This document shows, in pieces, positions 2,674 through 17,810 of a DNA stretch of 64,000 nt. The stretch is from Tissierellia bacterium. GTDB lineage: Bacteria > Bacillota > Clostridia > Tissierellales > Tepidimicrobiaceae. The translations under genes and the position numbers were made by a program. Position 1 is the stretch's first letter. The number at the start of each line of letters is the position of its first letter. The stretch spans positions 62,001-126,000 of the forward strand of contig JAAYHX010000006.1 of the NCBI GenBank assembly GCA_012735215.1, written 5' to 3'. The notes under the pieces are model-generated. The model saw only the letters and a program-made list of their open reading frames with translations, did no database searches and was not told the DNA's origin.

Positions 2674-2814
2674 GAAAATCACTCCTTTTTATAATTAGCT
2701 AATATCATTATATGTATCAGCCTTTATCTGGTCACAAGATTTAAATCCATCTTGACAAAACTAATAATTTCCTGTATATTGTTTAAATAAATAAGCCAAT
2801 ATTAATAGAAAAAG

Positions 2815-3066
2815 GTAATGAAGGGAAGAGTAGGTTTAATCTGAAACTATAGAGAGCCGGGATTGGTGGAAACCGGTGTTAAAGATTAAGCAGAAGATGG
2901 CCCCTAAACTTTACAGTTGAAGCTTAGTAGACTGTAACGGACAGCACCCGTTATTTAGTGCAAGGTTATGTTAGTAACCTAGTGAGGTTTAAACTGCGAA
3001 GTTTAAACGAAGTAGAGTGGTATCACGAAAATTAAGCCTTCGTCTCTATATGGGGATGAAGGCTTT
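2815..3066 (+). promoter_or_regulatory. T-box leader (tRNA-Met-type) of metG
   Basis: A ~250-nt leader with T-box architecture: a stem I region with AGAGAGCC near 2852, a specifier-loop-like GAAGATGGCC whose ATG (2897-2899) would be a Met codon, the T-box core AGAGTGGTATCACG (3014-3027), and a terminator hairpin AAGCCTTC/GAAGGCTT with T-run (3034-3066). TGGT in the core can pair with a tRNA ending in ACCA, which fits the A discriminator of tRNA-Met. The core deviates from the usual GGGTGGTACCGCG. Uncharged tRNA-Met should favour antitermination into metG. Confidence 0.85.
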
Positions 3067-3108: not shown

Positions 3109-5034
3109 GTGAGTAAGAGATATTATTTGACCACCCCTATTTATTATCCAAGTGATAATCTTCACATTGGCCATACTTACACTACTGTTGCTGCTGATAC
3201 ATTAAAGAAATTTAAGCAAGCTCAGGGATATGAAGTATATTTTGTAACTGGTTCCGATGAACATGGTCAAAAGATAGAACAAAAGGCTAAAGAAAACAAT
3301 ATGGAACCTAAAGAATACGTTGACATGATAGTTGAAAACATAAAAAGACTTTGGAGTATGTTGGGAGTATCCTATGATAAGTTCATAAGGACTACCGATA
3401 AGGATCATGAAAAGGTGGTACAGAAGATATTTACCCAGTTATATGAACAGGGGGACATTTACAAATCCCATTATGAGGGCTGGTATTGTACACCCTGTGA
3501 ATCCTTCTGGACAGAAAGCCAGTTATTAGATGGCAAATGTCCTGACTGCGGCAGGGATGTTCAGTTGACAAAAGAAGAAGCCTACTTTTTCAGACTGTCC
3601 AAATATAAGGATAGGATAATCCAGCTATTTGAGGAAAATCCAGATTTTCTACAGCCTGAATCCAGAAGAAATGAAATGATTAACAACTTCTTGAAGGAAG
3701 GGCTAGAGGACATTTCCGTATCCAGAAGTACCTTTGATTGGGGAGTGAAAGTTCCTTTTGATCCAAAGCATGTGGTATATGTATGGATAGATGCCTTGGC
3801 TTGTTATATTACAGCACTAGGCTATGGAATGGATAATGATGAAAACTTCCAAAAGTTCTGGCCTGCTAATCTTCATCTAGTAGGTAAGGAAATAGTTAGA
3901 TTCCATACTATCATCTGGCCAGCACTGCTTATGGCATTGGGACTAGAGGTGCCAAAGAAGGTCTTTGGACATGGCTGGATTCTATTTGATGATGACAAAA
4001 TGTCAAAATCCAAGGGCAATGTAATCTATCCAGAACCGATAATAGATCTTTATGGTATAGATGCCTTTAGATATTTCTTATTAAGGGATTTTTCTTTTGG
4101 TCAAGATGGTTCCTTTACTAGGGAGAAATTTTTACAGAGAATTAACTCTGATTTAGCTAATGACCTAGGCAACCTAGTGAGCAGAACAGTTACCATGGTT
4201 GAAAAATACAATGATGGTATACTTCCTGAACCAGTATTAAAAGAAGAATTAGATAACTCCCTAGTGGAAGTAGCAGTAAATGCTAAGGAGAAGGTTGAAA
4301 AATACATGGATCAGTTGAACTTCTCTCAAGCCCTAGAGGAGATTTGGAAGGTAGTTAGAAGGACTAACAAGTATATAGATGAGACTACTCCATGGATATT
4401 GATAAAAGAAGGTAAAAAGGATAGACTTGACACAGTATTGTATAATCTAACTGAAAGCATAAGAATCATAGCTACATTAATTAGTCCATTTATGGAAAAC
4501 ACAGCTAAAGAGATCTTCAATCAAATTGGATTTAGTCATAAAATAGATTGGGAAGAGGCTAAAGAATGGGGTATTATAAAAGCAGGTACCAAAGTCAATA
4601 AAGGAAAAGTCCTATTCCCAAGAATGGATATAGCAAAGGAATTAGAAAAGCTTGAAGAAGCAAACCAAAAGCTAATAGAGGAAAGATCCAAAAAGGCTGA
4701 AGGAGAGGAAGAATATATAAGCATAGAAGACTTTGACAAGGTTAAATTAAAAGTGGCAGAAGTTATAGAAGTAAAAGACCATCCAAATGCTGATAAACTT
4801 TTAGTATTGAAGCTTAAGCTTGGGGATGAAATAAGACAGGTAGTTTCTGGAATAAAGAAATACTACTCAAAAGAGGATCTAGTTGGCAAAAAAGTTGTAG
4901 TTATAGCCAACTTAAAACCTGTAAAGTTAAGAGGAATAGAATCCAAAGGCATGATATTGGCAGCTGAAAAGGACGGGAAATTGACCTTGGTATCCACTTT
5001 AGAGGATATTGAATCAGGAGCTACTATTTCATAA
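3109..5034 (+). CDS. metG: Methionyl-tRNA synthetase with C-terminal tRNA-binding domain
   Basis: Class I aminoacyl-tRNA synthetase charging tRNA-Met in the cytoplasm. The HIGH signature is HIGH at residues 19-22 and the KMSKS loop is at 297-301. A one-knuckle zinc site is formed by C127, C130, C144 and C147 (CTPC...CPDC). The C-terminal ~100 residues (about 535-641, [17 protein letters not shown]) are the EMAPII/Arc1-like tRNA-binding domain that dimerises these enzymes. The GTG start at 3109 has GAGGAGGG upstream. It lies behind the T-box leader and 12 bases before tatD, so the block is probably co-transcribed. Length (641) is normal for the MetG-plus-tRNA-binding form. Confidence 0.97.
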
Positions 5035-5046
5035 GGAGATGAAGAA

Positions 5047-5814
5047 ATGCTAATAGACAGTCATGCTCATCTGGATGACGAAAGATTTGACAAGGATAGG
5101 GATGATATTATAAAATCCCTTTATGAGTCTTATGTTGAACTTGTGATAAATCCTGGAGCAGATTTAAATAGCAGTATAAAGGCTGTAGCCCTTGCAGAAA
5201 AATATGATAACATCTATGCAGCAGTGGGGGTCCATCCCCACTCTGCTTCTGAAATGGACCAATCTACAATGGACATACTAAGATCTTTTGCAGCTAGGGA
5301 AAAGGTAGTAGCCATAGGGGAAATTGGCCTAGACTACTATTATGACAATTCTCCAAGGGATGTTCAGAGAAGGTGGTTTAGAGAACAGCTAAGACTTGCT
5401 AAGGAGGTAGATCTCCCAGTCATAATCCACTCAAGGGATGCTGCAGGTGATACTATGGAAATACTTAAGGAGGAACAGGACGGAAGGCTTACTGGGGTAC
5501 TACACTGCTATTCTGGAAGTGTTGAGATGGCAGAAGAATACATTAAGTTAGGCTTTTATATATCCCTTGCAGGCCCTGTAACCTTTAAAAATGCCAAGGT
5601 TCCTAAGGAAGTAGCAAAAGCTGTACCCTTAGATAAGTTACTAATAGAAACTGATTCCCCCTATATGACACCGGAACCCTATAGGGGTAAAAGAAATGAA
5701 CCTAAATATGTAAGATATGTAGCAGAAACCATTGCAGAGCTAAGGGGGATTTCCTTAGAGGAGCTGGCAGAAAAAACTTCAGAAAATGCAAAGAAACTTT
5801 TTAAGATTAAATAA
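5047..5814 (+). CDS. tatD: TatD-family metal-dependent DNase
   Basis: TIM-barrel metal-dependent hydrolase of the TatD/YcfH family, about 255 residues as usual. Metal-binding signatures are seen in order: DSHAHLDD near the N terminus (HxH), GEIGLDYYY, IHSRDA, LHCYSGS and IETDSPYMTP. In Bacillus the gene also sits directly after metG and before yabE/rnmV. AAGGAGATGA precedes the ATG. Exact cellular substrate is not settled for the family (3'-5' exonuclease activity is known for some members). A REP-like palindrome begins right after the stop codon. Confidence 0.95.
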   Translation: MLIDSHAHLDDERFDKDRDDIIKSLYESYVELVINPGADLNSSIKAVALAEKYDNIYAAVGVHPHSASEMDQSTMDILRSFAAREKVVAIGEIGLDYYYDNSPRDVQRRWFREQLRLAKEVDLPVIIHSRDAAGDTMEILKEEQDGRLTGVLHCYSGSVEMAEEYIKLGFYISLAGPVTFKNAKVPKEVAKAVPLDKLLIETDSPYMTPEPYRGKRNEPKYVRYVAETIAELRGISLEELAEKTSENAKKLFKIK

Positions 5815-5837
5815 GACAGAGGGACGGTTCTCTTGTC
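5815..5837 (+). repeat. REP-like short palindrome, copy 1
   Basis: A 23-base imperfect palindrome beginning GACAGAGGGACGG and ending TTCTCTTGTC, immediately after the tatD stop. The identical 23-mer occurs on the other strand at 50388-50410, also just after a stop codon in sense orientation; a diverged copy (4 mismatches) is at 40085-40107. The shared sequence extends through TTATTT on the right. Confidence 0.8.
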
Positions 5838-5900
5838 TTATTTGTCTTAGATGAAATAGATTTCTTCATATATGAATTGGAATAAAAGGAGTAAGCATTT

Positions 5901-6446
5901 ATGATTAAAGAGATAATAGTAGTAGAAGGCAGGGACGATGTTACTGCAGTTAAAAATGCATTAGATGCAGAGGTCATAGCTACTGGAGGCTTTGGATATG
6001 ACAGGAAGTTTATTGAGAATCTAAAGAAGATATCGGAAAAGAGAGGTATTATAATACTGACAGACCCGGACTATGCCGGTGAGAAGATAAGAAAGGATTT
6101 GACTAAGCACATAAAAAATTGCAAACATGCCTTTATTAAACAAGGGAAAGCTTTAAAGAAAGGCAATATAGGTGTGGAGAATGCTACTAAAGAAGACATA
6201 CAAGAGGCAATACTAAAGGCTAGACCGGAGATCTTGGAGAAGAGAGAAGAGTTCAGCAAAAGGGACTTGATAGAACTAGGTCTAGCAGGTGGAGAAAACA
6301 GCAGTAGAAGGAGAGAACAAGTAGGAGAAATCCTAGGCATAGGCTACTGTAATGCTAAGCAGTTCTTAAATAGACTCAACAATTTTGGCATAACAAGAGA
6401 AGAACTCATAAAAGCAGTGGAGAGGATAGAAAAGAATGAAGGATAA
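5901..6446 (+). CDS. rnmV: Ribonuclease M5
   Basis: Toprim-domain nuclease that trims both ends of the 5S rRNA precursor in Gram-positive bacteria. The Toprim residues are visible: E9 in VVEGRDD and the DxD pair D55/D57 in LTDPDYAG. The C-terminal half (ENSSRRREQVGEILGIGYCNAKQFLNRLNNFGI, given here in pieces by its helices) is the family-specific region. Length of 181 is normal. The 3' end overlaps rsmA by 11 bases, implying translational coupling, as in Bacillus rnmV-ksgA. Confidence 0.95.
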   Translation: MIKEIIVVEGRDDVTAVKNALDAEVIATGGFGYDRKFIENLKKISEKRGIIILTDPDYAGEKIRKDLTKHIKNCKHAFIKQGKALKKGNIGVENATKEDIQEAILKARPEILEKREEFSKRDLIELGLAGGENSSRRREQVGEILGIGYCNAKQFLNRLNNFGITREELIKAVERIEKNEG

Positions 6447-7305
6447 GAGATTGTATTCCCCTAAGTATATAAGAGAATTACTGGATAGATATGGATTTGC
6501 CTTTTCAAAGCAATTGGGCCAAAATTTCCTCATAGATGGAAACATAGTAAGGAATATAGTTAAAAAGGCCGGCATTAATAAAGATGATTATGTGCTGGAA
6601 ATAGGGCCAGGCATTGGGACTTTGACGGAAGAGTTAGCCCTTCATAGCAAGAAGGTGGTGGCTGTAGAAATAGATAAAAGCCTCCTTCCAATACTGGATG
6701 AAACCCTAGCTGAGTACGATAATGTGGAAATAGTGCATGGAGATATACTTAAGGTAGATATAGAAAAGCTAATAGATGAAAGACTAGGAGGAGGGCCTGT
6801 CAAGGTTGTAGCCAACCTTCCCTACTATGTGACCACTCCCATAATAGCAATGCTGATTGAGAAGGATCTAAATATTGACTCAATAACTGTCATGATACAA
6901 AAGGAAGTGGCCGATAGGGTTGCTGCAGAACCTGGAACTAAACAGTATGGGTCTCTTACTGTTTTTGTAAACTTCTACTGTCATGTGGAAACTCTACTAT
7001 CGGTGCCAAAAACTGTATTTATGCCTAGACCAAAGGTAGATTCAGCTGTAATAAAGCTAGACTTAAAAAAGACCATAGATGATGTGGACAAGAAACTCTT
7101 TTTCAAAGTAGTAAGAACTGCCTTCAATCAGAGGAGAAAGACCATACTAAATTCCCTGACATCAGCCCAGCTACATGTAGATAAGGAAATGGTAAAGCAA
7201 ATACTAGAGGAATGTAACATTCCCCTTAATGAGAGAGCTGAAAATTTAAAAATAGAAGATTTTATCAAGATTAGTAAAAGATTAACCTCCTTGAACATAT
7301 ATTAA
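6436..7305 (+). CDS. rsmA: 16S rRNA dimethyladenosine transferase
   Basis: KsgA/RsmA methyltransferase that dimethylates the two adjacent adenines in the 3' hairpin of 16S rRNA, a late 30S assembly step. Seen: LGQNFLID at about 27-34, the SAM-binding EIGPGIGTLT at 55-64, the catalytic NLPYYVTTPI motif near 126, and the basic C-terminal domain with FNQRRKT. Length 289 is typical. It overlaps rnmV and is followed after 28 bases by an unrelated acidic protein with its own AGGAGG site. Confidence 0.97.
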   Translation: MKDKRLYSPKYIRELLDRYGFAFSKQLGQNFLIDGNIVRNIVKKAGINKDDYVLEIGPGIGTLTEELALHSKKVVAVEIDKSLLPILDETLAEYDNVEIVHGDILKVDIEKLIDERLGGGPVKVVANLPYYVTTPIIAMLIEKDLNIDSITVMIQKEVADRVAAEPGTKQYGSLTVFVNFYCHVETLLSVPKTVFMPRPKVDSAVIKLDLKKTIDDVDKKLFFKVVRTAFNQRRKTILNSLTSAQLHVDKEMVKQILEECNIPLNERAENLKIEDFIKISKRLTSLNIY

Positions 7306-7333
7306 TATAAAGATTAAAAAAGGAGGTTAACTG

Positions 7334-8626
7334 ATGCCAGGGGATTTTACATACTTTAGAAAATTTATAATCCTTAAAGACGACTATACAAGCCTTGAAA
7401 ATATCAACCCTAAGGGTCATGGCAAGATAGAGACCAGGGGGAATAGAGGCCTATTAAGATTGAACCTTGAAAACTGCGAAAAAGATCAGGCATACAGTAT
7501 ATATTTTCTCATGGGGAAAAAAGGAGAAGTAAAGGAATTGGATATGGGGAAAATATTCACTGATGATAGGGGCAAGGGTAGAGCTGACATTTCCATCAAT
7601 TTAAAGGATATTGAATTAAAGGGCTTTCCCATCCATAAGGTAGAGGCATTGGTAGTAAAAAGAGGTGACCATATAATTCTAGCCGGGAATATGGATAAGG
7701 ATAGCAAGGTTTTAGAAGAATATACAAGGTCTATTTTCAAAGAAACCATTGATAAGACTGAAGAACTAGAACAGCCCCTTGAAGAAGAGGAGCAGGTTGT
7801 AGAAGCTGATGATAAGGAAACTCAAGAGGATCTATCTAGGCACTTTCCAGTTGGATTTCTAGGGGGAGTGATTGAAAAAGAATCTAAGGAAGAGCCAAAA
7901 GAGGATGCTGAAAGAGATATACAAGATGAAGCTGAGGAAGGATTAGAAGAAGAGATTAAGGTAGAAGAAGTAAAGCAAGGTTGGCAGGAAGTGCCAGAAG
8001 AATTAGAGAAAGAAGCTGAAGAACAAGCAGAAGAGGAAAAAGTTATAGAAGAAACTAAGGAGGCCAGAGAAAAGGAAACAGAAGTACAAGACGCAATAGA
8101 AGAAGGCTATGAAACCTTTGAACCTTTTGAGCCTGATAGTCCATCTTATGAACAAATTGAATACATCCGCAGACTTAATCACAAGAATCAGATGACAGAT
8201 TATATATTAAGCGTGTTGAAGTATTTCCCACAAGTACAACCTTTTAAAATATACCTTCACGGATATACCTGGTGGAGAATAGATGATGATGGTTACAACT
8301 CCTATAAGGGCTTCTTGCCATATTATAACTATTTACTAAGTGCTGATTATAAATATCCATTTTTACATGATTCCACCACATGTTTAGATCAAATAAGAAA
8401 ATATGGCCACTATCTGTTTGGAATCTATTCTGAAGGCAATCAGGTTAAGTATTATGTGTATGCCATTCCAGGAAGGTTTACTACAGAGGAGCACCCCTTT
8501 AAAGGAATTACAGGATTTAATACCTGGTATGATTCTATTGACGAGGTGGGGTATTGGATACTTTATATAGATCCATTAATGGGCAAGATAATATATCCAA
8601 TAAATCCTATGACACCTGGGGATTAG
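7334..8626 (+). CDS. Unknown three-part protein with Glu-rich linker
   Basis: Not assigned to a named family. Three regions are visible in 430 residues. Residues 1-135 are a compact beta-rich domain (YFRKFIILKDD, GLLRLNLENC, YSIYFLMGKKGEVKEL). Residues about 140-265 are very acidic low-complexity sequence (long runs of Glu/Lys/Ala, likely helical or disordered). Residues about 266-430 form an aromatic C-terminal domain (KIYLHGYTWWRIDDDG, YGHYLFGIYSEGNQVKYYVYAIPG, GYWILYIDPLMGKIIYPI). No signal peptide or membrane helix. Position directly after rsmA with a good AGGAGG site (AAAGGAGGTTAACTG) suggests co-expression with that block. Aromatic C-terminal domains of this kind occur in clostridial spore-associated proteins, but a spore role is only a guess. 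Confidence 0.6.
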   Translation: MPGDFTYFRKFIILKDDYTSLENINPKGHGKIETRGNRGLLRLNLENCEKDQAYSIYFLMGKKGEVKELDMGKIFTDDRGKGRADISINLKDIELKGFPIHKVEALVVKRGDHIILAGNMDKDSKVLEEYTRSIFKETIDKTEELEQPLEEEEQVVEADDKETQEDLSRHFPVGFLGGVIEKESKEEPKEDAERDIQDEAEEGLEEEIKVEEVKQGWQEVPEELEKEAEEQAEEEKVIEETKEAREKETEVQDAIEEGYETFEPFEPDSPSYEQIEYIRRLNHKNQMTDYILSVLKYFPQVQPFKIYLHGYTWWRIDDDGYNSYKGFLPYYNYLLSADYKYPFLHDSTTCLDQIRKYGHYLFGIYSEGNQVKYYVYAIPGRFTTEEHPFKGITGFNTWYDSIDEVGYWILYIDPLMGKIIYPINPMTPGD

Positions 8627-8684
8627 ACTATACTTTGTAGAGCAATAGATAGTTGGCTTTAAAATCATATAGAATGTAAAAAAG

Positions 8685-8711
8685 AATGAGGACAGCTAAT
8701 CCTCATTTTTT
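8685..8711. terminator. Bidirectional terminator between the unknown gene and comFB-like gene
   Basis: AATGAGGA and TCCTCATT pair around a seven-base loop, with A-run on the left and T-run on the right. The comFB-like stop codon lies inside the hairpin. Confidence 0.75.
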
Positions 8712-8974
8712 CTGCAATTTTTACATATGATTTTCTTTGCCTCAATAATGCTTGCCACTACCGATATGCGCCTTTGCTTGTCCAAAAGAAATGCCTTTTT
8801 TTCACCTTCACTAACAGCAGAGGTGAAGTACTTGGGTTCTAAATTGTTAAGGGCTACAGATTTAATGTCATTAATGCATTTTTTATTGTCACATACCTTA
8901 TATTTTATGTTTACTTCTTGAAATATTTCATCTACTAGTATTTCCATATAGTTTTTTACCATCTTAACTACCAT
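8696..8974 (-). CDS. ComFB-like late competence family protein
   Basis: A 92-residue protein resembling Bacillus ComFB: an N-terminal helix (NYMEILVDEIF), KYKVCDNKKCINDIKSVALNNLEPKYFTS in the centre (shown by its pieces CDNKKC, ALNNLEP and KYFTS), and a C-terminal CKNC pair, giving four cysteines that could bind zinc. Function of ComFB is unclear even in Bacillus; in cyanobacteria related proteins bind cyclic dinucleotides. No other competence genes are nearby. The start at 8974 has a weak AAAGGG; an ATG four codons later is possible. Confidence 0.75.
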   Translation of the reverse strand: MVVKMVKNYMEILVDEIFQEVNIKYKVCDNKKCINDIKSVALNNLEPKYFTSAVSEGEKKAFLLDKQRRISVVASIIEAKKIICKNCRKNED

Positions 8975-9091
8975 CCCTTTAATTTTATCTTAGTGTACTA
9001 TTTATTATAATATACATTTACCTTCGGTTGTCAATTGAATTTTGATTAATAAAATTTTATGAGGGTAGTATATAATAAAGATAAAATTATG

Positions 9092-9120
9092 TTGACATAT
9101 ATACCCCGGTAGGGTATAAT
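9092..9120 (+). promoter_or_regulatory. Promoter with embedded CsoR-like operator
   Basis: TTGACA (9092-9097) and TATAAT (9115-9120) are 17 bases apart. The 17-base palindrome ATACCC-N5-GGGTAT (9101-9117) fills the spacer and enters the -10 box. The same half-sites recur at 10211-10227 before the selenoprotein gene. ATACCC/GGGTAT half-sites resemble the sites of CsoR/CstR/FrmR-type repressors; the identity of the regulator is inference and no such gene is in the window. Confidence 0.75.
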
Positions 9121-9157
9121 GAAAATAGAATATAGTTTAGATTAGGGAGGAATAAAA

Positions 9158-9391
9158 ATGGCAAAGGATGTAATAATCTACACAAGTAATACTTGCCCAT
9201 ATTGTGTAACTGCTAAGGAGTACTTGCAAGAAAAGGGTATATCATATACAGAAAAGAACATACAAGAAGATCTTACTGCTAGAAAAGAATTGATGGATAT
9301 GGGACACATGGGAGTGCCAGTGTTACTAATTGATGGAGAAGAAGTAGTTGGATTTAACAAACCCAAAATTGATGAGCTACTAGGCTTATAA
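9158..9391 (+). CDS. Glutaredoxin-like thiol oxidoreductase (CPYC)
   Basis: A 77-residue stand-alone thioredoxin-fold protein. The active site CPYC is at residues 13-16 after IIYTSNT; the cis-Pro segment MGVPVLLI and GEEVVGFN follow. Size and motifs match the short NrdH/YruB-type glutaredoxins, probably reducing disulfides in the cytoplasm. Some clostridial relatives of this group have selenocysteine at the first active-site position; here it is a TGC Cys. Strong RBS TAGGGAGGAA. Its promoter carries the CsoR-like operator shared with the HesB-like selenoprotein, so it probably responds to the same signal (metal, persulfide or similar; inference). Confidence 0.88.
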
Positions 9392-9402
9392 TAAGTCAAA
9401 GA

Positions 9403-9437
9403 AAATCCCTTTTGCGATGGCAAAAGGGATTTTTTTA
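9403..9437. terminator. Terminator between glutaredoxin and DUF1858 genes
   Basis: AAATCCCTTTTG pairs with CAAAAGGGATTT, followed by seven T on the plus strand; also usable from the minus strand (convergent genes). Confidence 0.85.
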
Positions 9438-9623
9438 TTATGAATTTAAAGCTTCTAATAGTTCAGATAGATCTATACCATGAACCATTGCAGCTTGCTC
9501 TAAGGATTCCATTTGGCTTGCAGGACATCCAATACATCCTAATCCAAAGCTCAATAGAGTGTCAACTGCCTCTGGTTTATTGCGAATGATTTCGCCAATT
9601 AAAGTGTCCTTTGTAATTTCCAT
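9438..9623 (-). CDS. DUF1858 redox-disulfide protein
   Basis: A 61-residue protein that is nearly all DUF1858 domain, the family also described as hybrid-cluster-protein-associated redox disulfide domain. The core is GLGCIGCPAS with a CxxC pair (residues about 34-37), preceded by the helix GEIIRNKPEAVD and followed by SLEQAAMVHGID. Likely a small redox or sulfur/NO-related partner protein; exact role unknown. The ATG at 9623 has GAGGAGG six bases upstream; a much longer frame-open extension (46 residues) has no RBS and is hydrophobic junk. Convergent with the glutaredoxin gene. Confidence 0.85.
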   Translation of the reverse strand: MEITKDTLIGEIIRNKPEAVDTLLSFGLGCIGCPASQMESLEQAAMVHGIDLSELLEALNS

Positions 9624-9773
9624 TTTAAACCTCCTCAATTTCCTAATATATTTCACTACATATTGCTTACCCAAGTATATTATAAGTATAACACAAGATA
9701 GATATAAATAAAATAATTTATTTAGCGTATAAAAAAAATCAAATTGGTTAATCTTATACAAGGAGGTGTTCTT

Positions 9774-10163
9774 ATGGAAAACAATAACAATGAAAGAAAT
9801 AGGGAGACTAGTGATAATAGAACTACTGATTGGAATATAGGAGAACTCATAATCAGATTGATAGTGACTGCCATTGTAATAGGAATTGCAGCATTCTTAA
9901 CTCCTGGTTTTTCCATAGATAATCTTTGGAGTCTTATAATGGCAGCTATAGTAATAGCAGTATTGGACTATCTAATTCAGAAATTTACCGGAGTCAATGC
10001 AAGTCCCTTTGGAAGGGGAATAACAGGATTTATTGTTGCTGCAATCATTCTTTATGCTACTAAGTTTATAGTTCCTGGATTTAACATATCCCTTTGGGGA
10101 GCTATAATTGGAGCTTTGGTTATAGGGATAATAGATGTGATAATTCCAGGAAGAGCCATGTAA
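9774..10163 (+). CDS. YvlD/phage-holin-4-like membrane protein
   Basis: A 129-residue membrane protein with a polar N-terminal tail (about 25 residues rich in Asn/Arg/Thr) and four hydrophobic helices: IGELIIRLIVTAIVIGIAA, SLIMAAIVIAVLDYL, FIVAAIILYA and AIIGALVIGIIDV. Two internally similar halves are visible (TPGFSIDNLWS... and VPGFNISLWGA...), the pattern of the YvlD family annotated as phage holin family 4. In Bacillus YvlD belongs to an envelope-stress operon. No phage genes surround it. ATG 9774 is chosen because AAGGAGGTG lies 6 bases upstream; the ten-codon longer frame lacks an RBS. Confidence 0.85.
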   Translation: MENNNNERNRETSDNRTTDWNIGELIIRLIVTAIVIGIAAFLTPGFSIDNLWSLIMAAIVIAVLDYLIQKFTGVNASPFGRGITGFIVAAIILYATKFIVPGFNISLWGAIIGALVIGIIDVIIPGRAM

Positions 10164-10193
10164 CCCTCTAAATTATCTTAGAGGGTTTTTTAT
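10162..10193 (+). terminator. Terminator of the YvlD-like gene
   Basis: AACCCTCTAA and TTAGAGGGTT form the stem, followed by TTTTTATTT. The stem starts at the stop codon. Confidence 0.85.
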
Positions 10194-10200
10194 TTAAATA

Positions 10201-10230
10201 TTGATTAACGATACCCTAATGGGGTATAAT
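10201..10230 (+). promoter_or_regulatory. Promoter with CsoR-like operator for the selenoprotein gene
   Basis: TATAAT at 10225-10230 with TTGATT at 10201-10206 (18-base spacer). The palindrome ATACCC-TAATG-GGGTAT (10211-10227) overlaps the -10 box in the same way as the 9101-9117 site. Seven of eight base pairs around the central A match. Confidence 0.75.
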
Positions 10231-10258
10231 TGTATTAAAAGTAGGAGGAGGAATAATA

Positions 10259-10555
10259 ATGAAAATAAAAATAACTGATATAGCAAAAGAACAACTATTG
10301 AAAGCTTTAAGCTCAAGAGAGGATAATAAACCTTTAAGAATATATATAGCCAGCTTTGGTTGAGGTGGTCCTTCCTTTGGATTAGCTCTGGATGAGCCAA
10401 AAGAAGATGACGTAAAGTATGAAGTAGATGATTTCACTTTTGTAATGGAAGAGCACATTGATGAAACTTTCAATTCCTTTACTATAGACTACAGCAATAG
10501 CTGGATTAGAAGAGGTTTTTCAGTTATACCAGATAGAAATGTATCTACCTGCTAA
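10259..10555 (+). CDS. HesB/IscA-like selenoprotein (UGA = Sec35)
   Basis: A 98-residue A-type iron-sulfur-carrier-like protein interrupted by one in-frame TGA at 10361-10363 (codon 35). Reading it as selenocysteine gives SFGUGGPSFGLALDEP, where the family's first conserved Cys is expected. The remainder is typical HesB/IscA: helix ITDIAKEQLLKAL, IYIASFG, FVMEEHIDE, FTIDYS, and a C-terminal Cys (STC) in place of the usual CGC. HesB-like selenoproteins are an established clostridial family. A SECIS-like hairpin starts seven bases after the TGA. AGGAGGAGG precedes the ATG. Gene callers will miss or split it. Role: probably sulfur/selenium or redox metabolism rather than bulk Fe-S assembly (inference). 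Confidence 0.9.
10371..10406 (+). promoter_or_regulatory. Putative bacterial SECIS element
   Basis: CTTCCTTTGG (10371-10380) pairs with CCAAAAGAAG (10397-10406) with one mismatch; within the loop GCTC (10385-10388) and GAGC (10394-10397) cap a UGGAU apical loop. The exposed G pair lies about 27 nt after the UGA, within the usual range for SelB-binding hairpins. Confidence 0.65.
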
Positions 10556-10740
10556 TAATTTTTAGTAGTTTGTGAAAGCTAAAGGGTAAATGTATTTTAC
10601 CCTTTAGCTTTTTGCATTATATGTATTAACTGATATAATGAAGATATAGAAATTAGGATTTTGTCAAATAAGCACTTTTATAAATATGTAAGTTTATGTT
10701 AAAATAAAGTGTACTAAAAGTACAAAAATATGATTAAATC

Positions 10741-10862
10741 CTTAGGGAATACAGGGGGTGATGATTAGTGGATTCTGGTCCTTTACCTGAACTGAGTGGA
10801 AGTATAATTATTTCAACAAAATTTAATAGGAAGAACACTGGTCATCACCAGCAAGTGTTCTT
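10741..10862 (+). promoter_or_regulatory. Structured 5' leader of mgtE
   Basis: The 323-base gap before mgtE holds a likely promoter (-10-like TAAAAT near 10700) and a structured leader. AAGAACACT (10831-10839) pairs with AGTGTTCTT (10854-10862), inner TGGT/ACCA extends it, and the hairpin ends at the ribosome binding site. GGTGATG (10757-10763) is complementary to CATCACC (10843-10849) in the hairpin, so two exclusive folds, or a pseudoknot, are possible. It does not show the canonical M-box sequence. Confidence 0.45.
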
Positions 10863-10878
10863 CTAGGGAGGCGATAAA

Positions 10879-12216
10879 ATGGATCTAAAAGAATTGGAAA
10901 TACTCCTTACACAAAAGAACTATGCAGCATTGAAAAAAGAGCTAGAAGAGATGAATCCTGTTGATGTGGCTGACCTATTACAATCCTTGGAAATTCACAA
11001 GGCCTTGATCGTGTTTAGAATGCTTTCAAAGGATTTGGCTGCAGAGGTATTTTCTTTCTTTTCCATCGATATGCAGAGGGATATAATAGGACTTATTACT
11101 GATAGGGAGTTAAAGGATATTATAGATGAGTTGTTTTTTGACGATATGATAGACATCATAGAAGAGATGCCTGCAAATGTGGTGAAGAAAATACTAGCCC
11201 ATGCAAAGGAAGAGGAAAGGAATCTAATCAACCAATTCTTAAGATATCCACCTGATTCAGCAGGCAGCATAATGACTATAGAATATGTAGATCTAAAAAA
11301 AGATATGACTGTCGGGGAAGCCCTAAGCCACATAAAGGGAACAGGGATAAATAAAGAAACAGTATATACCTGTTATGTGCTAGATAAAAACAGGAAGTTA
11401 GAAGGTATTGTATCTCTAAGAAACCTAGTTATAAGTGATGAAGATGAAGTCATAGAAGATATTATGAATACTGATGTAATATATGTTCACACCCATGATG
11501 ACCAGGAAAGTGTAGCAAATGTGTTTATTAAATATGGCTTTATAGCCTTACCTGTCGTGGATAAGGAGAACAGGCTTACAGGAATTATAACCGTAGATGA
11601 CATTATGGATGTTATGGAGCAGGAGGCAACAGAAGACTTTCAAAAGATGGCAGCTATGTCACCATCAGAGGAGGCATATTTAGACACAGGAGTATTGACC
11701 TTGGCCAGACACAGATTACCATGGCTTTTATTATTGATGATTTCCGCAACCTTTACAGGAAGAATAATGCTTAAATTTGAAGAGTTATTGTCATCCGTAG
11801 TTATTCTTAGTGCTTTTATTCCTATGCTTATGGATACTGGCGGGAATTCGGGAAATCAATCTTCGACGTTGATAATTAGAGGATTAGCTACTGGAGAACT
11901 ATCTATTCGTGATTGGTATAAAGTACTGTGGAAAGAGTTTAGAATCAGTATTATAGTTGGAATATTTCTTTCCCTAATAAATCTATTAAGGCTTATATAC
12001 ATTGAAAAGGTTGCATTTATAATAGCTTGTGTAATTTCCTTAACTACAGTAGTAACAGTTATTTCTGCAAAACTAGTAGGAGGTATCTTACCTATAATAG
12101 CTAAAAAGATTGGATTAGACCCAGCTATTATGGCAGGGCCAATAATTACAACTATAATAGATGCTTTGAGCTTAATGGTTTACTTTGGTATAGCAACTGC
12201 TTTGCTAGGATTATAA
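10879..12216 (+). CDS. mgtE: Magnesium transporter MgtE
   Basis: Mg2+ channel/transporter of the MgtE family (445 residues, normal length). The N domain (about 1-125, superhelical, MNPVDVADLLQSL, ELFFDDMIDIIEEMP) is followed by paired CBS domains (about 130-255, YVDLKKDMTVGEAL and GFIALPVVDKENRLTGIITVDDIM) that sense cytosolic Mg2+. Five C-terminal membrane helices follow (about 275-445) with the conserved MDTGGNSGNQSST loop and AGPIITTIIDALSLMVYF pore helix end. A long structured leader precedes it, suggesting RNA-level control. Monocistronic, closed by a terminator. Confidence 0.96.
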   Translation: MDLKELEILLTQKNYAALKKELEEMNPVDVADLLQSLEIHKALIVFRMLSKDLAAEVFSFFSIDMQRDIIGLITDRELKDIIDELFFDDMIDIIEEMPANVVKKILAHAKEEERNLINQFLRYPPDSAGSIMTIEYVDLKKDMTVGEALSHIKGTGINKETVYTCYVLDKNRKLEGIVSLRNLVISDEDEVIEDIMNTDVIYVHTHDDQESVANVFIKYGFIALPVVDKENRLTGIITVDDIMDVMEQEATEDFQKMAAMSPSEEAYLDTGVLTLARHRLPWLLLLMISATFTGRIMLKFEELLSSVVILSAFIPMLMDTGGNSGNQSSTLIIRGLATGELSIRDWYKVLWKEFRISIIVGIFLSLINLLRLIYIEKVAFIIACVISLTTVVTVISAKLVGGILPIIAKKIGLDPAIMAGPIITTIIDALSLMVYFGIATALLGL

Positions 12217-12248
12217 AAGAGCTAGAAATCGTTTCTAGCTCTTTTTTA
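12215..12248 (+). terminator. Terminator of mgtE
   Basis: AAAAGAGCTAGAAA pairs with TTTCTAGCTCTTTT, followed by TTATA; strong stem starting at the stop codon. Confidence 0.9.
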
Positions 12249-12347
12249 TATAATTCGAGTATATGATTATGACAAGTCAACCACAATTGGCACTTATATT
12301 ATTTTATTTCATAAAATATATTAATAACTGGTTTAGGGGGAAATAAT

Positions 12348-13697
12348 ATGGTTGCAGGTTACAATATCAGATGTGTTGATAAAGAAAAAGGTCGAGAATT
12401 GGTAATACCCCTAGAAAGGATGGTTGGTCTACTCTTAAAGAAGGAAATTGATGTGAATTTTCATATAGAAGCTTTAAAAGCTCAAGCAGTAGCTATTAGG
12501 ACAAATCTATTAAGGATTTCTGGCCCTATGGAGGTAAAGGATCTTGATGTGGATTTAGATTTGGAGTATGAACCTAATGAAAGGATAAGAAAAGTACTTG
12601 AGGAAACGGAGGGCATAATAATCACCTTCAATGGAAAGCCAATTGATGCTAAGTATCATGTTACCTGTGGAGGTAGTACGGAAAATTCGGAAAATGTATT
12701 AAAAAATTCTGTTACCTATTTGAGAAGGGTCCTATGTGATTACTGTAAGGATTCTCCCTATTGGTGGAAGGAAAAGAGCTTTTCAGTTGAGGAAATTGAG
12801 AAGATTTTAAAGATAAAGTTTCCTAAGATGGATGTGGTTGAAAGCCCTCAAATAGAAGGCTTTATGGAAAATATTGAAAAGGATCCATATGGAAGGGTAA
12901 AGTCCATTAAAATTGGCAATAAGGAGTTTACGGGATTAGAGTTAATGGAACTTCTATCTTTAAATTCTACCAGGTTCTCCATATACCCTTCCAGTATAAA
13001 GTTTGTATCTAGGGGTAAGGGTCATGGCATTGGCTTATGCCAATATGGAGCAAACAAGATGGCTGAAGAAGGCTATTCCTATAAGGAAATACTCAAATAC
13101 TACTATACAGGGGTGGAACTAGAGAACCTAGTAATGCCTAGTGAAGATAAGCCCCTATATGGCAAGAGGATAATGTTAGATCCTGGTCATGGAGGCAGTG
13201 ACACAGGCTATAAAGGCGATTATCTTGGCTTGTTGGAAAAGGATATAACTCTTAGCTTAGGCCTAAAGCTTAAGAAAAAGCTGGAGGACTTAGGAGCCAC
13301 TGTATACATGACTAGGGATGAAGATAAGAAAATACTGACCATTAAACGAATTGAGCAAGCTAACCACATAAAACCAGATTTTTTCATAAGCCTTCACCTA
13401 GATTACTTTCCAAGGTCTAGTGTAAAGGGAGTAGACATGTTCTATTTTAAGGGGGATGAGGAAAGCAGAGCCCTGGGATTATGCATATTGAAGAGAATAA
13501 AAGAAGAACAAATTCCTGCTAAGAGCATAAAGGAAGGTAATTTTTATATTTTTAGAGGAGTAAGCGTTAGTTCTCTTTTAATAGAAACAGGATATCTATC
13601 AAGTCAAGAGGAAGAGTATAGCCTAAATGAAGAAAAATATATGGAAAAGCTTGCGAATGCCATAGCAAAGGGGATAGTAGATTATTTTTTTTATTAG
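12348..13697 (+). CDS. SpoIID/LytB-domain and amidase_3 fusion protein
   Basis: A two-domain peptidoglycan hydrolase. Residues about 10-265 are a SpoIID/LytB-type domain: HIEALKAQAVAIRT with the catalytic-type Glu at 41, VTCGGSTENSENV, CDYCKDSPYWW and GKGHGIGLCQYGANKMAEEG. Residues about 270-449 are an N-acetylmuramoyl-L-alanine amidase of the amidase_3 class: LDPGHGGSDTG, a second zinc-type Glu after the helix start (LLEKDITLSL), ISLHLDYF, and the catalytic-type LLIETGYLS near the end. So the activities of SpoIID (glycan cleavage) and SpoIIP-like amidase (stem peptide removal) are on one chain. There is no signal peptide at the N terminus, although the RBS TAGGGGG fixes this start. How it reaches the wall is unclear. 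Proximity to veg and spore genes hints at a forespore or sporulation role (inference). Confidence 0.85.
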   Translation: MVAGYNIRCVDKEKGRELVIPLERMVGLLLKKEIDVNFHIEALKAQAVAIRTNLLRISGPMEVKDLDVDLDLEYEPNERIRKVLEETEGIIITFNGKPIDAKYHVTCGGSTENSENVLKNSVTYLRRVLCDYCKDSPYWWKEKSFSVEEIEKILKIKFPKMDVVESPQIEGFMENIEKDPYGRVKSIKIGNKEFTGLELMELLSLNSTRFSIYPSSIKFVSRGKGHGIGLCQYGANKMAEEGYSYKEILKYYYTGVELENLVMPSEDKPLYGKRIMLDPGHGGSDTGYKGDYLGLLEKDITLSLGLKLKKKLEDLGATVYMTRDEDKKILTIKRIEQANHIKPDFFISLHLDYFPRSSVKGVDMFYFKGDEESRALGLCILKRIKEEQIPAKSIKEGNFYIFRGVSVSSLLIETGYLSSQEEEYSLNEEKYMEKLANAIAKGIVDYFFY

Positions 13698-16826: not shown

Positions 16827-17810
16827 TTGGATTTATCAAGAGAAAAACTAATCCACATGTATAAGACAATGAAGAGGATTAGGGAATTTGAAAACAAGGC
16901 TGGAGAGCTATTTGCAGAAGGAAGTATACCAGGATTTGTTCACTTATATATAGGAGAGGAAGCAGTAGCCACGGGAGTCTGTGCTAATCTAAAAGATTCT
17001 GATTTTATCACCAGTACCCATAGGGGTCATGGCCACATTGTAGCCAAGGGTGGAGACTTAAAGTATATGTTTGCTGAGCTCTTTGGAAAGGCAACAGGTT
17101 ATTGTAAGGGTAAAGGAGGGTCCATGCATATAGCAGATGCTGACAAAGGAATTCTTGGAGCCAATGGAATAGTAGGTGCAGGCCATAATATTGCAGTAGG
17201 AGCAGGCTTAACCGCCAAGTATAAGGGGGCCGACCAGGTGTGCGTCTGCTTCTTTGGTGATGGTTCTACCAACCAGGGAACCTTCCACGAATCCTTGAAT
17301 CTAGCGAGCATTTGGAAGCTACCTGTAATCTTCGTATGTGAAAACAACCTATATGGAATTTCCATGCATCAATCTAGACACCAGGCTATTCAGGATGTGG
17401 CAGATAGGGCAGTAGCATATAATATTCCAGGTGTAGTTGTGGACGGAAATGATGTATTGGCAGTATATGAAACTGCAAAGGAAGCCATAGAGAGGGCTAG
17501 AAATGGTCAGGGGCCAACCCTAATAGAATGTAAGACCTATAGGCACAGGGGCCACTTTGAAGGGGATCCAGTAGTCTATAGGGATGAAGAGGAAGTAAAG
17601 GAATGGCTTGCTAAGGATCCTATCCCAAGATTAATAAACTATATGCTTGACAATGACATAGTGACTGAAGAGGATATAAAGAAGATTGATGAAGAAGTAG
17701 ATGCTGAAATAAAAGAAGCTATTAAGTTTGCAGAAGAAAGTCCATATCCTCCTTTAGAGGCTGCTGTTGAAGACATATATACCGATTTAGTAGAGGAGGT
17801 AAGAAGATGA
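16827..17810 (+). CDS. acoA: Acetoin dehydrogenase E1 component, alpha subunit
   Basis: Thiamine-diphosphate-dependent E1 alpha subunit that cleaves acetoin with AcoB, passing the acetyl group to lipoyl-AcoC. The TPP-binding motif is GDGSTNQGTFHESLN...ENN (about 148-180). Also seen: HLYIGEEAVATG, THRGHGH, KGGSMHIAD and YRHRGHFEGDP. TTG start at 16827 behind AAAGGGGGGAG. The 3' end overlaps acoB by four bases (ATGA). Could in principle serve another 2-oxo acid, but acoX and AcoR alongside point to acetoin. Confidence 0.94.
   Translation: MDLSREKLIHMYKTMKRIREFENKAGELFAEGSIPGFVHLYIGEEAVATGVCANLKDSDFITSTHRGHGHIVAKGGDLKYMFAELFGKATGYCKGKGGSMHIADADKGILGANGIVGAGHNIAVGAGLTAKYKGADQVCVCFFGDGSTNQGTFHESLNLASIWKLPVIFVCENNLYGISMHQSRHQAIQDVADRAVAYNIPGVVVDGNDVLAVYETAKEAIERARNGQGPTLIECKTYRHRGHFEGDPVVYRDEEEVKEWLAKDPIPRLINYMLDNDIVTEEDIKKIDEEVDAEIKEAIKFAEESPYPPLEAAVEDIYTDLVEEVRR

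What the first reader, a model, noticed from the sequence alone, without database searches (positions are those of the whole stretch)
10259..10555. HesB/IscA-like selenoprotein with in-frame UGA and SECIS hairpin
A TGA at codon 35 sits exactly where the A-type iron-sulfur carrier family has its first Cys, giving GUGGPSFG. A stem-loop with UGGAU tip starts seven bases later. The gene is invisible to standard callers, which see only fragments. The C-terminal CGC is reduced to a single Cys, so it is probably not an ordinary Fe-S carrier.
Basis: partly seen in the sequence, partly recalled or inferred. Interest (0 to 1): 0.75.

Follow-up and report, generated by a model that had tools for sequence, protein, structure and literature searches.

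The report
Selenoprotein under a shared redox switch
This is very probably a real selenium-containing protein of a family known for about twenty years whose job nobody knows; its promoter, like that of a neighbouring glutaredoxin gene, carries a DNA site of the kind read by copper- and sulfur-sensing repressors, which gives a regulatory clue to what the protein may do.

Summary
The finding holds. Window 10259-10555 (+) encodes a 98-residue A-type (IscA/HesB-like) protein with TGA at codon 35, where Cys homologues have their first Cys. The gene was found in 18 of 20 same-family genomes, always with that TGA. Selection is equal before and after it. The codons of the SECIS tip are frozen (GCTCTGGATGAG in 18 of 18). 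The genome has selA, selB, a TGA-bearing selD and tRNA-Sec. By homology it is a new member of the known 'HesB-like' selenoprotein family, though below both curated cut-offs. New here: its promoter contains ATACCCTAATGGGGTAT, a CsoR-family-type operator. The only other exact copy at this spacing in the held 1.885-Mb assembly sits in the promoter of the glutaredoxin gene 1.1 kb upstream. A box of this form precedes hesB-Sec in 18 of 18 family orthologues and 29 of 76 others in the phylum sample (15 of 30 families), but 0 of 21 Cys-type loci held. Six csoR-like loci beside aspS/tcdA carry it too, five followed by thioredoxin. I infer that hesB-Sec belongs to a thiol-redox regulon under a CsoR-family repressor, with Sec35 and the C-terminal Cys98 as working ligands. 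Regulator, inducer and chemistry are untested.

The parts
10259..10555 (+). hesB-Sec gene: A-type (IscA/HesB-like) selenoprotein, 98 residues, Sec35 and one Cys (Cys98, the last residue)
10361..10363 (+). in-frame TGA read as selenocysteine (codon 35)
   Evidence: TGA in 18 of 18 family orthologues found; aligns with TGC/TGT of 21 Cys-type homologues
10384..10398 (+). SECIS tip: stem-loop with apical loop UGGAU (10389-10393)
   Evidence: 27 aligned sequences, two pairs with changes on both sides, three invariant pairs; synonymous sites frozen
10211..10227 (+). operator-like palindrome ATACCCTAATGGGGTAT in the hesB-Sec promoter
10201..10230 (+). sigma-70-type promoter TTGATT-18-TATAAT; the box lies in the spacer and overlaps the second hexamer
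   Evidence: 10 of 12 matches; a consensus match only
10162..10187 (+). intrinsic-terminator-like site after the gene upstream, which suggests that hesB-Sec is transcribed on its own
9101..9117 (+). second exact copy of the palindrome, ATACCCCGGTAGGGTAT, in the glutaredoxin promoter
   Evidence: only these two exact copies at this spacing in the held assembly
9092..9120 (+). sigma-70-type promoter TTGACA-17-TATAAT before the glutaredoxin gene (12 of 12 matches), the box in its spacer and overlapping the second hexamer
   Evidence: consensus match
9158..9391 (+). glutaredoxin (CPYC; nearest to YruB-like glutaredoxins, below the cut-offs of that and of the UXX-star model), proposed co-regulated partner
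   Evidence: box at the same place in 14 of 17 family loci where it could be seen

Best explanation
The gene makes a HesB-like selenoprotein: UGA at codon 35 is decoded as Sec with the help of a SECIS tip at 10384-10398 (well supported by comparison, not shown biochemically). Its transcription, and that of the glutaredoxin at 9158-9391, is controlled through the palindrome ATACCC-N5-GGGTAT by a CsoR-family (PF02583) repressor, most likely the one encoded in the aspS-tcdA-rseC-csoR cluster (G000:C4:43444) (inferred). The repressor would leave the DNA when its cysteines meet soft metal ions such as Cu(I) or reactive sulfur (persulfide/polysulfide) (inferred from the family). The protein keeps only Sec35 and the terminal Cys98 in place of the three Cys of IscA. 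I propose that it takes up the inducing species, forming a Se-S(n) or Se-metal-S adduct between Sec35 and Cys98, and that the co-regulated glutaredoxin (thioredoxin in other lineages) releases it (inference, no direct evidence).
For: Sec. Box: exact pattern at only two places in the assembly, the glutaredoxin and hesB-Sec promoters; strict box before hesB-Sec in 18 of 18 family orthologues and 47 of 94 in all, against a mean of 0.05 (maximum 2) in 1000 first-order Markov resamplings, 0 of 21 Cys-type loci and 0 of 94 downstream stretches; of 8 boxes before 575 other long ORFs, 6 are the hesB box itself seen from a divergent ORF and the other 2, both in L209, precede trxB-trxA and a 4Fe-4S protein gene. 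CsoR family: the published S. lividans csoR operator contains ATACCCCTGGTGGGTAT, three central bases away from the glutaredoxin box (PMC3902906 Table 1, passage); all 28 genomes outside the family with a strict box have PF02583 genes, against 31 of 39 without, and 20 of 20 in the family; a box lies before the csoR-like gene in six of the seven aspS/tcdA-linked loci held from outside the family, five of the six followed by thioredoxin; a csoR-like gene lies directly beside hesB-Sec in two of 94 loci, in one of them (L182) with a boxed hesB-Sec and a rhodanese gene downstream. One Sec and one Cys in 18 of 18.
Against: No binding, expression or chemistry was tested. 47 of 94 hesB-Sec genes have no strict box (47 of the 76 outside the family). 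The family's own csoR-like gene (20 of 20 loci) has no box within 140 nt. With two mismatches allowed the box is not enriched in the genome over the reversed control (89 against 91 per strand), nor is the shorter TACC-N6-GGGTA (8 strand hits against 9), so the regulon cannot be extended by loose matches; other spacings were not searched genome-wide. L163, the other locus with an adjacent csoR-like gene, has no box. One genome (G328) has a loose box and no PF02583 gene. The regulator's middle His is His or Tyr within the family, so the inducer cannot be told. Nine of 94 hesB-Sec proteins have no Cys at all, which a universal Sec-Cys mechanism does not explain. The PF02583 comparison is not corrected for kinship.
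Confidence: 0.5

Rival explanations
1. A selenocysteine version of an ordinary A-type carrier: Sec35 replaces one cluster ligand and the protein delivers Fe-S clusters or iron, and the promoter box only ties it to copper stress, which damages Fe-S clusters (recalled).
For: PF01521 over the gathering score; sequence relation to solved A-type proteins 2apn, 1nwb, 1s98; Sec aligns with the first Cys; a box precedes a 4Fe-4S protein gene in L209.
Against: Only one Cys is left in the family, and only 3 of 94 hesB-Sec proteins have CxC in their last 20 residues. The box ties it to glutaredoxin and, elsewhere, thioredoxin genes. Recalled: IscA uses three Cys.
Confidence: 0.2
2. A pure soft-metal buffer: under a copper-type CsoR, Sec35 and Cys98 bind Cu(I) (or Hg, Cd) two-coordinately, and the glutaredoxin keeps the ligands reduced.
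For: The box resembles a copper CsoR operator; the nine csoR-like genes with a box before them all have Cys and His-x3-Cys at the places that I recall for copper sensors, and in L228 the gene is followed by HMA-domain and DsbD/CcdA-like genes.
Against: In this genome a separate csoR-like gene lies beside copZ/copA-like genes, and the promoter of that copA has a different G-tract palindrome. The regulator of the aspS cluster has Tyr in place of the middle His here. In L182 the neighbour lacks that His, as CstR does (recalled), and a rhodanese follows hesB-Sec.
Confidence: 0.3
3. The palindrome is not a CsoR-family operator but the site of another regulator, or a 5' mRNA hairpin.
For: In several family promoters it lies near or after the likely start of transcription (by eye), and the scan also lists it as terminator-like. 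No protein-DNA evidence exists.
Against: In the glutaredoxin promoter it lies in the 17-nt spacer and second hexamer of a perfect sigma-70 consensus. In the 18 family promoters TACC and GGGTA never vary, rather than covary. It matches a published CsoR operator and precedes csoR-like genes.
Confidence: 0.2
4. Pseudogene, sequencing error or genome-wide reading of TGA as an amino acid.
For: The frame is interrupted by TGA.
Against: Same TGA in 18 of 18 orthologues found, with purifying selection on both sides. TGA ends another gene of the window, 16827-17810, and TGG is in use. Sec machinery present.
Confidence: 0.01

Closest known systems
HesB-like selenoprotein family (TIGR01911 / NF038090; PMC1794560 Table 1, PMC13188914 Table 1)
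   Same: A-type by sequence, Sec at the first Cys, UxGP motif (UGGP here), SECIS tip, Sec machinery; HesB-like is already listed for the clostridium Alkaliphilus metalliredigenes in 2006.
   Different: Scores below both curated cut-offs (79.2 of 85 and 56.1 of 66.35); only one Cys, at the very end; operator-like box in the promoter, for which I found no mention in print (with their limits).
IscA / ErpA / SufA A-type Fe-S carriers (PF01521)
   Same: Sequence relation over the Pfam gathering score; residue 98 aligns with a C-terminal Cys of HI1723 (2apn).
   Different: Sec in place of the first Cys; one Cys only; no strict promoter box in the 21 Cys-type loci held.
CsoR operators (S. lividans, PMC3902906) and CstR persulfide regulons (E. 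faecalis, PMC9405070); passages seen
   Same: G-tract pseudopalindrome TACC..GGTA in the promoter; thiol/sulfur genes (rhodanese, CoA-disulfide-reductase-like, thioredoxin) nearby in some loci.
   Different: Here the most widely boxed target seen is a selenoprotein gene; the regulator is not adjacent in this genome and its inducer is unknown.

Membership tests
HesB-like selenoprotein (TIGR01911/NF038090) | In-frame UGA aligned with the first Cys of HesB/IscA | tested here: met
HesB-like selenoprotein (TIGR01911/NF038090) | UxGP motif (PMC13188914 Table 1) | tested here: met
   UGGP in 18 of 18
HesB-like selenoprotein (TIGR01911/NF038090) | Bacterial SECIS just after the UGA | tested here: met
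   Tip conserved with two covarying pairs and frozen synonymous sites; lower stem weakly supported; no bSECISearch run
HesB-like selenoprotein (TIGR01911/NF038090) | Sec-decoding machinery in the genome | tested here: met
HesB-like selenoprotein (TIGR01911/NF038090) | NCBI curated score cut-offs (85 and 66.35 bits) | tested here: not met
   79.2 and 56.1 with C for U, 72.9 and 54.1 with X. Both are still its two best NCBIfam matches. Of nine other family members scored singly none passes NF038090 and one passes TIGR01911 (L034, 68.5). In the phylum sample no match of any of 398 genomes passes NF038090 (translated frames), so that cut-off does not separate this clade from other Sec members. By the strict rule I file it as 'HesB-like selenoprotein by homology', not as a formal hit of either model.
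HesB-like selenoprotein (TIGR01911/NF038090) | Selenium in the protein | not testable with these tools
   needs 75Se or mass spectrometry; PMC11097638 says the M. maripaludis HesB-like selenoprotein was identified via mutagenesis and 75Se labelling (passage)
A-type Fe-S carrier (PF01521) | Sequence match over the Pfam gathering score | tested here: met
   31.8 against 26.3
A-type Fe-S carrier (PF01521) | Three Cys ligands (C..CxC; recalled) | tested here: not met
   one Sec and one Cys
A-type Fe-S carrier (PF01521) | Binds and transfers Fe-S clusters | not testable with these tools
   none
CsoR-family regulon | Operator of the published form in the promoter | tested here: met
   (resemblance to a published site; binding not tested)
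CsoR-family regulon | A PF02583 regulator in the genome | tested here: met
   two genes
CsoR-family regulon | Regulator binds the site and responds to its inducer | not testable with these tools
   none

The most novel reading that the evidence does not exclude
In many lineages of this phylum the HesB-like selenoprotein is a main target of a CsoR-family repressor that governs a small thiol-redox regulon (hesB-Sec, glutaredoxin, thioredoxin, thioredoxin reductase). The orphan selenoprotein family would thus be a stress-induced Sec/Cys acceptor for Cu(I) or reactive sulfur rather than a housekeeping Fe-S carrier.
Probability: 0.6. Interest if true: 0.7.

Novelty: new member of a known kind. Interest (0 to 1): 0.5.

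Why it matters
HesB-like selenoproteins have been known for about twenty years without a function; a 2024 study still calls it not clear and mentions, as an unpublished observation, that a disruption mutant of M. maripaludis was not impaired in nitrogen fixation (PMC11097638, passage). An operator-like box shared with glutaredoxin and thioredoxin genes names a regulator family, a set of inducers to try (copper, sulfide/polysulfide, selenite) and partner enzymes, so the question becomes testable. It also points to a selenoprotein clade that scores below current annotation cut-offs.

Tried and rejected
Fold of the window SECIS stretch alone: not better than shuffles. AlphaFold of the protein alone: mean pLDDT 37.6, unusable, so no fold search was run. 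Viral contigs: none of 41 pattern hits encodes a relative. The genome-contig scan found one relative, a Desulfitobacterium Cys form (L035). Box with two mismatches, and the shorter TACC-N6-GGGTA: no enrichment over the reversed control. A spacing variant TACCAGCTAGGGTA lies about 1.2 kb from the csoR-like gene in L140; not followed. Control by the csoR-like gene beside copZ/copA: made less likely by the different palindrome before copA, not excluded. Pseudogene and TGA reassignment: rejected. Constancy of the half-sites in the phylum-wide box set says nothing, because the search pattern fixes them; I use only the 18 family promoters for that point. Paper searches: of five HesB+CsoR papers I looked at passages of two, where the CsoR hit was an author name; the other three were seen only as listings. 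The one HesB+CstR paper is about zeolite catalysis (listing). Of 106 selenoprotein+CsoR papers ten listings were seen, and of 73 papers with two of four terms fifteen. No call names the organism or its phylum; Bacillota is my guess from gene content.

Full report
Observation. The frame 10259-10555 (+) read with TGA as Sec gives a 98-residue protein with U35 and C98. It matches Pfam Fe-S_biosyn over its gathering score. Its two best NCBIfam matches are the two HesB-like selenoprotein models, both below their cut-offs (79.2 of 85; 56.1 of 66.35). With X instead of C at the Sec position the scores fall to 72.9 and 54.1.

Selenocysteine. Of 20 genomes held from the same family (the window's own included), 18 carry the gene, each with one in-frame TGA; the two without a match are G001 (86% complete) and G008 (92% complete, 7% contaminated). 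All 20 have a selB match; 19 have one over the cut-off, and in G003 it lies in pieces on different contigs. The window's genome has selD, selA and selB in a row (C14:75392-79756; the selD itself holds one TGA) and a tRNA-Sec with anticodon TCA. In 48 aligned loci (L017 is the window's own; its duplicate L043 left out) the column is TGA in 27 and TGC or TGT in 21. pN/pS is 0.289 before and 0.274 after the TGA among the 15 family members of equal length; three of other length were left out. TGA also ends another gene of the window.

SECIS. Eight to eleven codons after the Sec codon all 18 family members read GCTCTGGATGAG. Elsewhere in the same genes CTG is 5% of Leu and GAG 21% of Glu codons. 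In 27 Sec loci the Leu codon is CTG in 27 and the Glu codon GAG in 27, while Cys-type homologues vary. The stem 10384-10398 has three invariant pairs and two pairs with changes on both sides. Its covariation score and its count of cells changed on both sides (9, mean 3.7) exceed all 500 shuffles, a control that does not allow for kinship; the count of pairs so changed does not (334 of 500 reach it). In 94 Sec loci the tip CTCTGGA stands at the same place in 64 and one codon later in 3, CTTTGGA at the same place in 11, and 8 show none of the variants looked for. The stretch alone folds no better than shuffles.

One Sec, one Cys. In the 18 family members the only Cys is the last residue. It aligns with a C-terminal Cys of HI1723 (2apn). 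Of 94 Sec proteins, 62 end in Cys, 48 have one Cys in all, 9 have none, and 3 have CxC in the last 20 residues.

The promoter box. Upstream of hesB-Sec lies ATACCCTAATGGGGTAT (10211-10227), overlapping a TTGATT-18-TATAAT promoter-like site. The exact pattern ATACCC-N5-GGGTAT occurs at two places in the 1,885,111 bases held (25 contigs). The other, 9101-9117, lies in a perfect TTGACA-17-TATAAT consensus about 40 bases before the glutaredoxin gene 9158-9391. Three more places have one mismatch; up to two mismatches there is no excess over the reversed control (89 against 91 per strand), nor for the shorter TACC-N6-GGGTA (8 against 9 strand hits). Other spacings were not searched genome-wide. The 94 hesB-Sec loci are the 18 family loci, L065, and the other 75 TGA-bearing matches read with their surroundings. 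The strict box ([AG]TACC-N4-6-GGGTA[TC], within 150 nt of the start) precedes hesB-Sec in 18 of 18 family loci and 47 of 94 in all; the looser form in 57 of 94. Outside the family this is 29 of 76 loci and 15 of 30 families. Controls: first-order Markov resamplings of the upstream stretches 0.05 on average (maximum 2 in 1000 runs), Cys-type loci held 0 of 21, downstream stretches 0 of 94. Before other ORFs of 150 codons or more in the same loci 8 of 575 had a box. Six of these are the hesB box itself seen from a divergent ORF; the other two, both in L209, precede trxB-trxA and a 4Fe-4S protein gene. At the glutaredoxin the box is present in 14 of 17 family loci where the place is on the contig, and in L065; the three without are of one genus.

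Which regulator. The box has the form of CsoR-family operators: the S. lividans csoR site contains ATACCCCTGGTGGGTAT (PMC3902906, Table 1 passage). PF02583 genes: two in this genome, present in 20 of 20 family genomes, in 28 of 28 other genomes with a strict box and in 31 of 39 without (kinship not corrected). One of the eight genomes without PF02583, G328, has a loose box. One of the two genes here lies beside a copZ-like gene, in a cluster led by a copA-like ATPase whose promoter has a different palindrome, ACCCCCAGGGGGG. The other is in an aspS-tcdA-rseC-csoR cluster (Pfam: class II tRNA synthetase, ThiF, RseC), conserved in 20 of 20 family genomes and without a box within 140 nt of its own. 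Outside the family I hold 30 PF02583 loci, the best-scoring ones. Nine have a box in a relaxed form within 140 nt of the matched region. Seven lie beside aspS or tcdA; six of these seven have the box, 31-62 nt before the matched region. In five of the six a thioredoxin gene follows (Pfam thioredoxin in four; in L239 read from the sequence). Three of those six come from genomes whose hesB-Sec has no strict box (G022, G057, G174). A PF02583 gene adjoins hesB-Sec in L182 and L163 (2 of 94). In L182 hesB-Sec has the box, the regulator lacks the middle His, as CstR does (recalled), and a rhodanese gene follows hesB-Sec; L163 has no box. These links make a CsoR-family repressor the likeliest reader of the box and a thiol-redox regulon the likeliest setting. 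Whether the inducer is copper or reactive sulfur is open; CstR senses persulfides through two Cys (PMC9774590, passage).

Mechanism. Supported by comparison: the Sec codon, its SECIS tip, one Sec and one Cys, the box and its spread. Inferred: repressor binding, inducer, Sec35-Cys98 adduct and its release by glutaredoxin. Against it: half of the hesB-Sec genes have no strict box, and nine proteins have no Cys.

Known or new. The HesB-like selenoprotein is listed for bacteria including Alkaliphilus metalliredigenes in PMC1794560 (table passages) and as UxGP family TIGR01911 in PMC13188914 (passages). PMC11097638 says its function is not clear (passages). I found no paper linking it to a CsoR-type operator (searches, whose hits I saw only in part). 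So the gene is a new member of a known kind; the regulatory link is the new part.

Noticed in passing
G000:C14:75392-76315 (L037): selD is itself interrupted by one TGA, so it is probably a selenoprotein too; it stands in a row with selA and selB.
   Followed up: partly
window 2809-3050: T-box leader (Rfam RF00230, 124.7 bits) just upstream of the methionine--tRNA ligase gene 3109-5034.
   Followed up: partly
window 9438-9623 (-): Hybrid-cluster-protein-associated redox disulfide protein (TIGR03980; DUF1858) between the glutaredoxin and hesB-Sec, on the other strand, seen at this place in most family loci; no strict box listed before it.
   Followed up: partly
window 3109-13697 and L070-L087: The gene order around hesB-Sec (metG-tatD-rnmV-ksgA ... 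glutaredoxin-DUF1858-holin-like-hesB-Sec-mgtE) is largely kept in the family loci and in L087 of another family (tatD, rnmV and ksgA named by eye).
   Followed up: yes
L167, L185, L186, L192: hesB-Sec follows selB in four loci of two other families (selB over the cut-off in all four, selA before it tested and over the cut-off in L167 and L185).
   Followed up: partly
L209 (G148): Boxes of the same kind lie before trxB-trxA and before a 4Fe-4S protein gene near a hesB-Sec gene that has none.
   Followed up: partly
L162 (G077): CoA-disulfide-reductase-like gene (453.8 bits, cut-off 458) directly upstream of a boxed hesB-Sec.
   Followed up: partly
L228, L233: csoR-like genes with a relaxed box lead a row of HMA-domain, DsbD/CcdA-like (Pfam in L228) and TlpA-like (by eye) genes, another thiol/metal redox set.
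   Followed up: partly
L149 (G303), about 274 nt before hesB-Sec: A second box lies before a short remnant that starts like a second hesB-type gene, upstream of the boxed hesB-Sec; possible tandem duplicate with one decayed copy (by eye).
   Followed up: no
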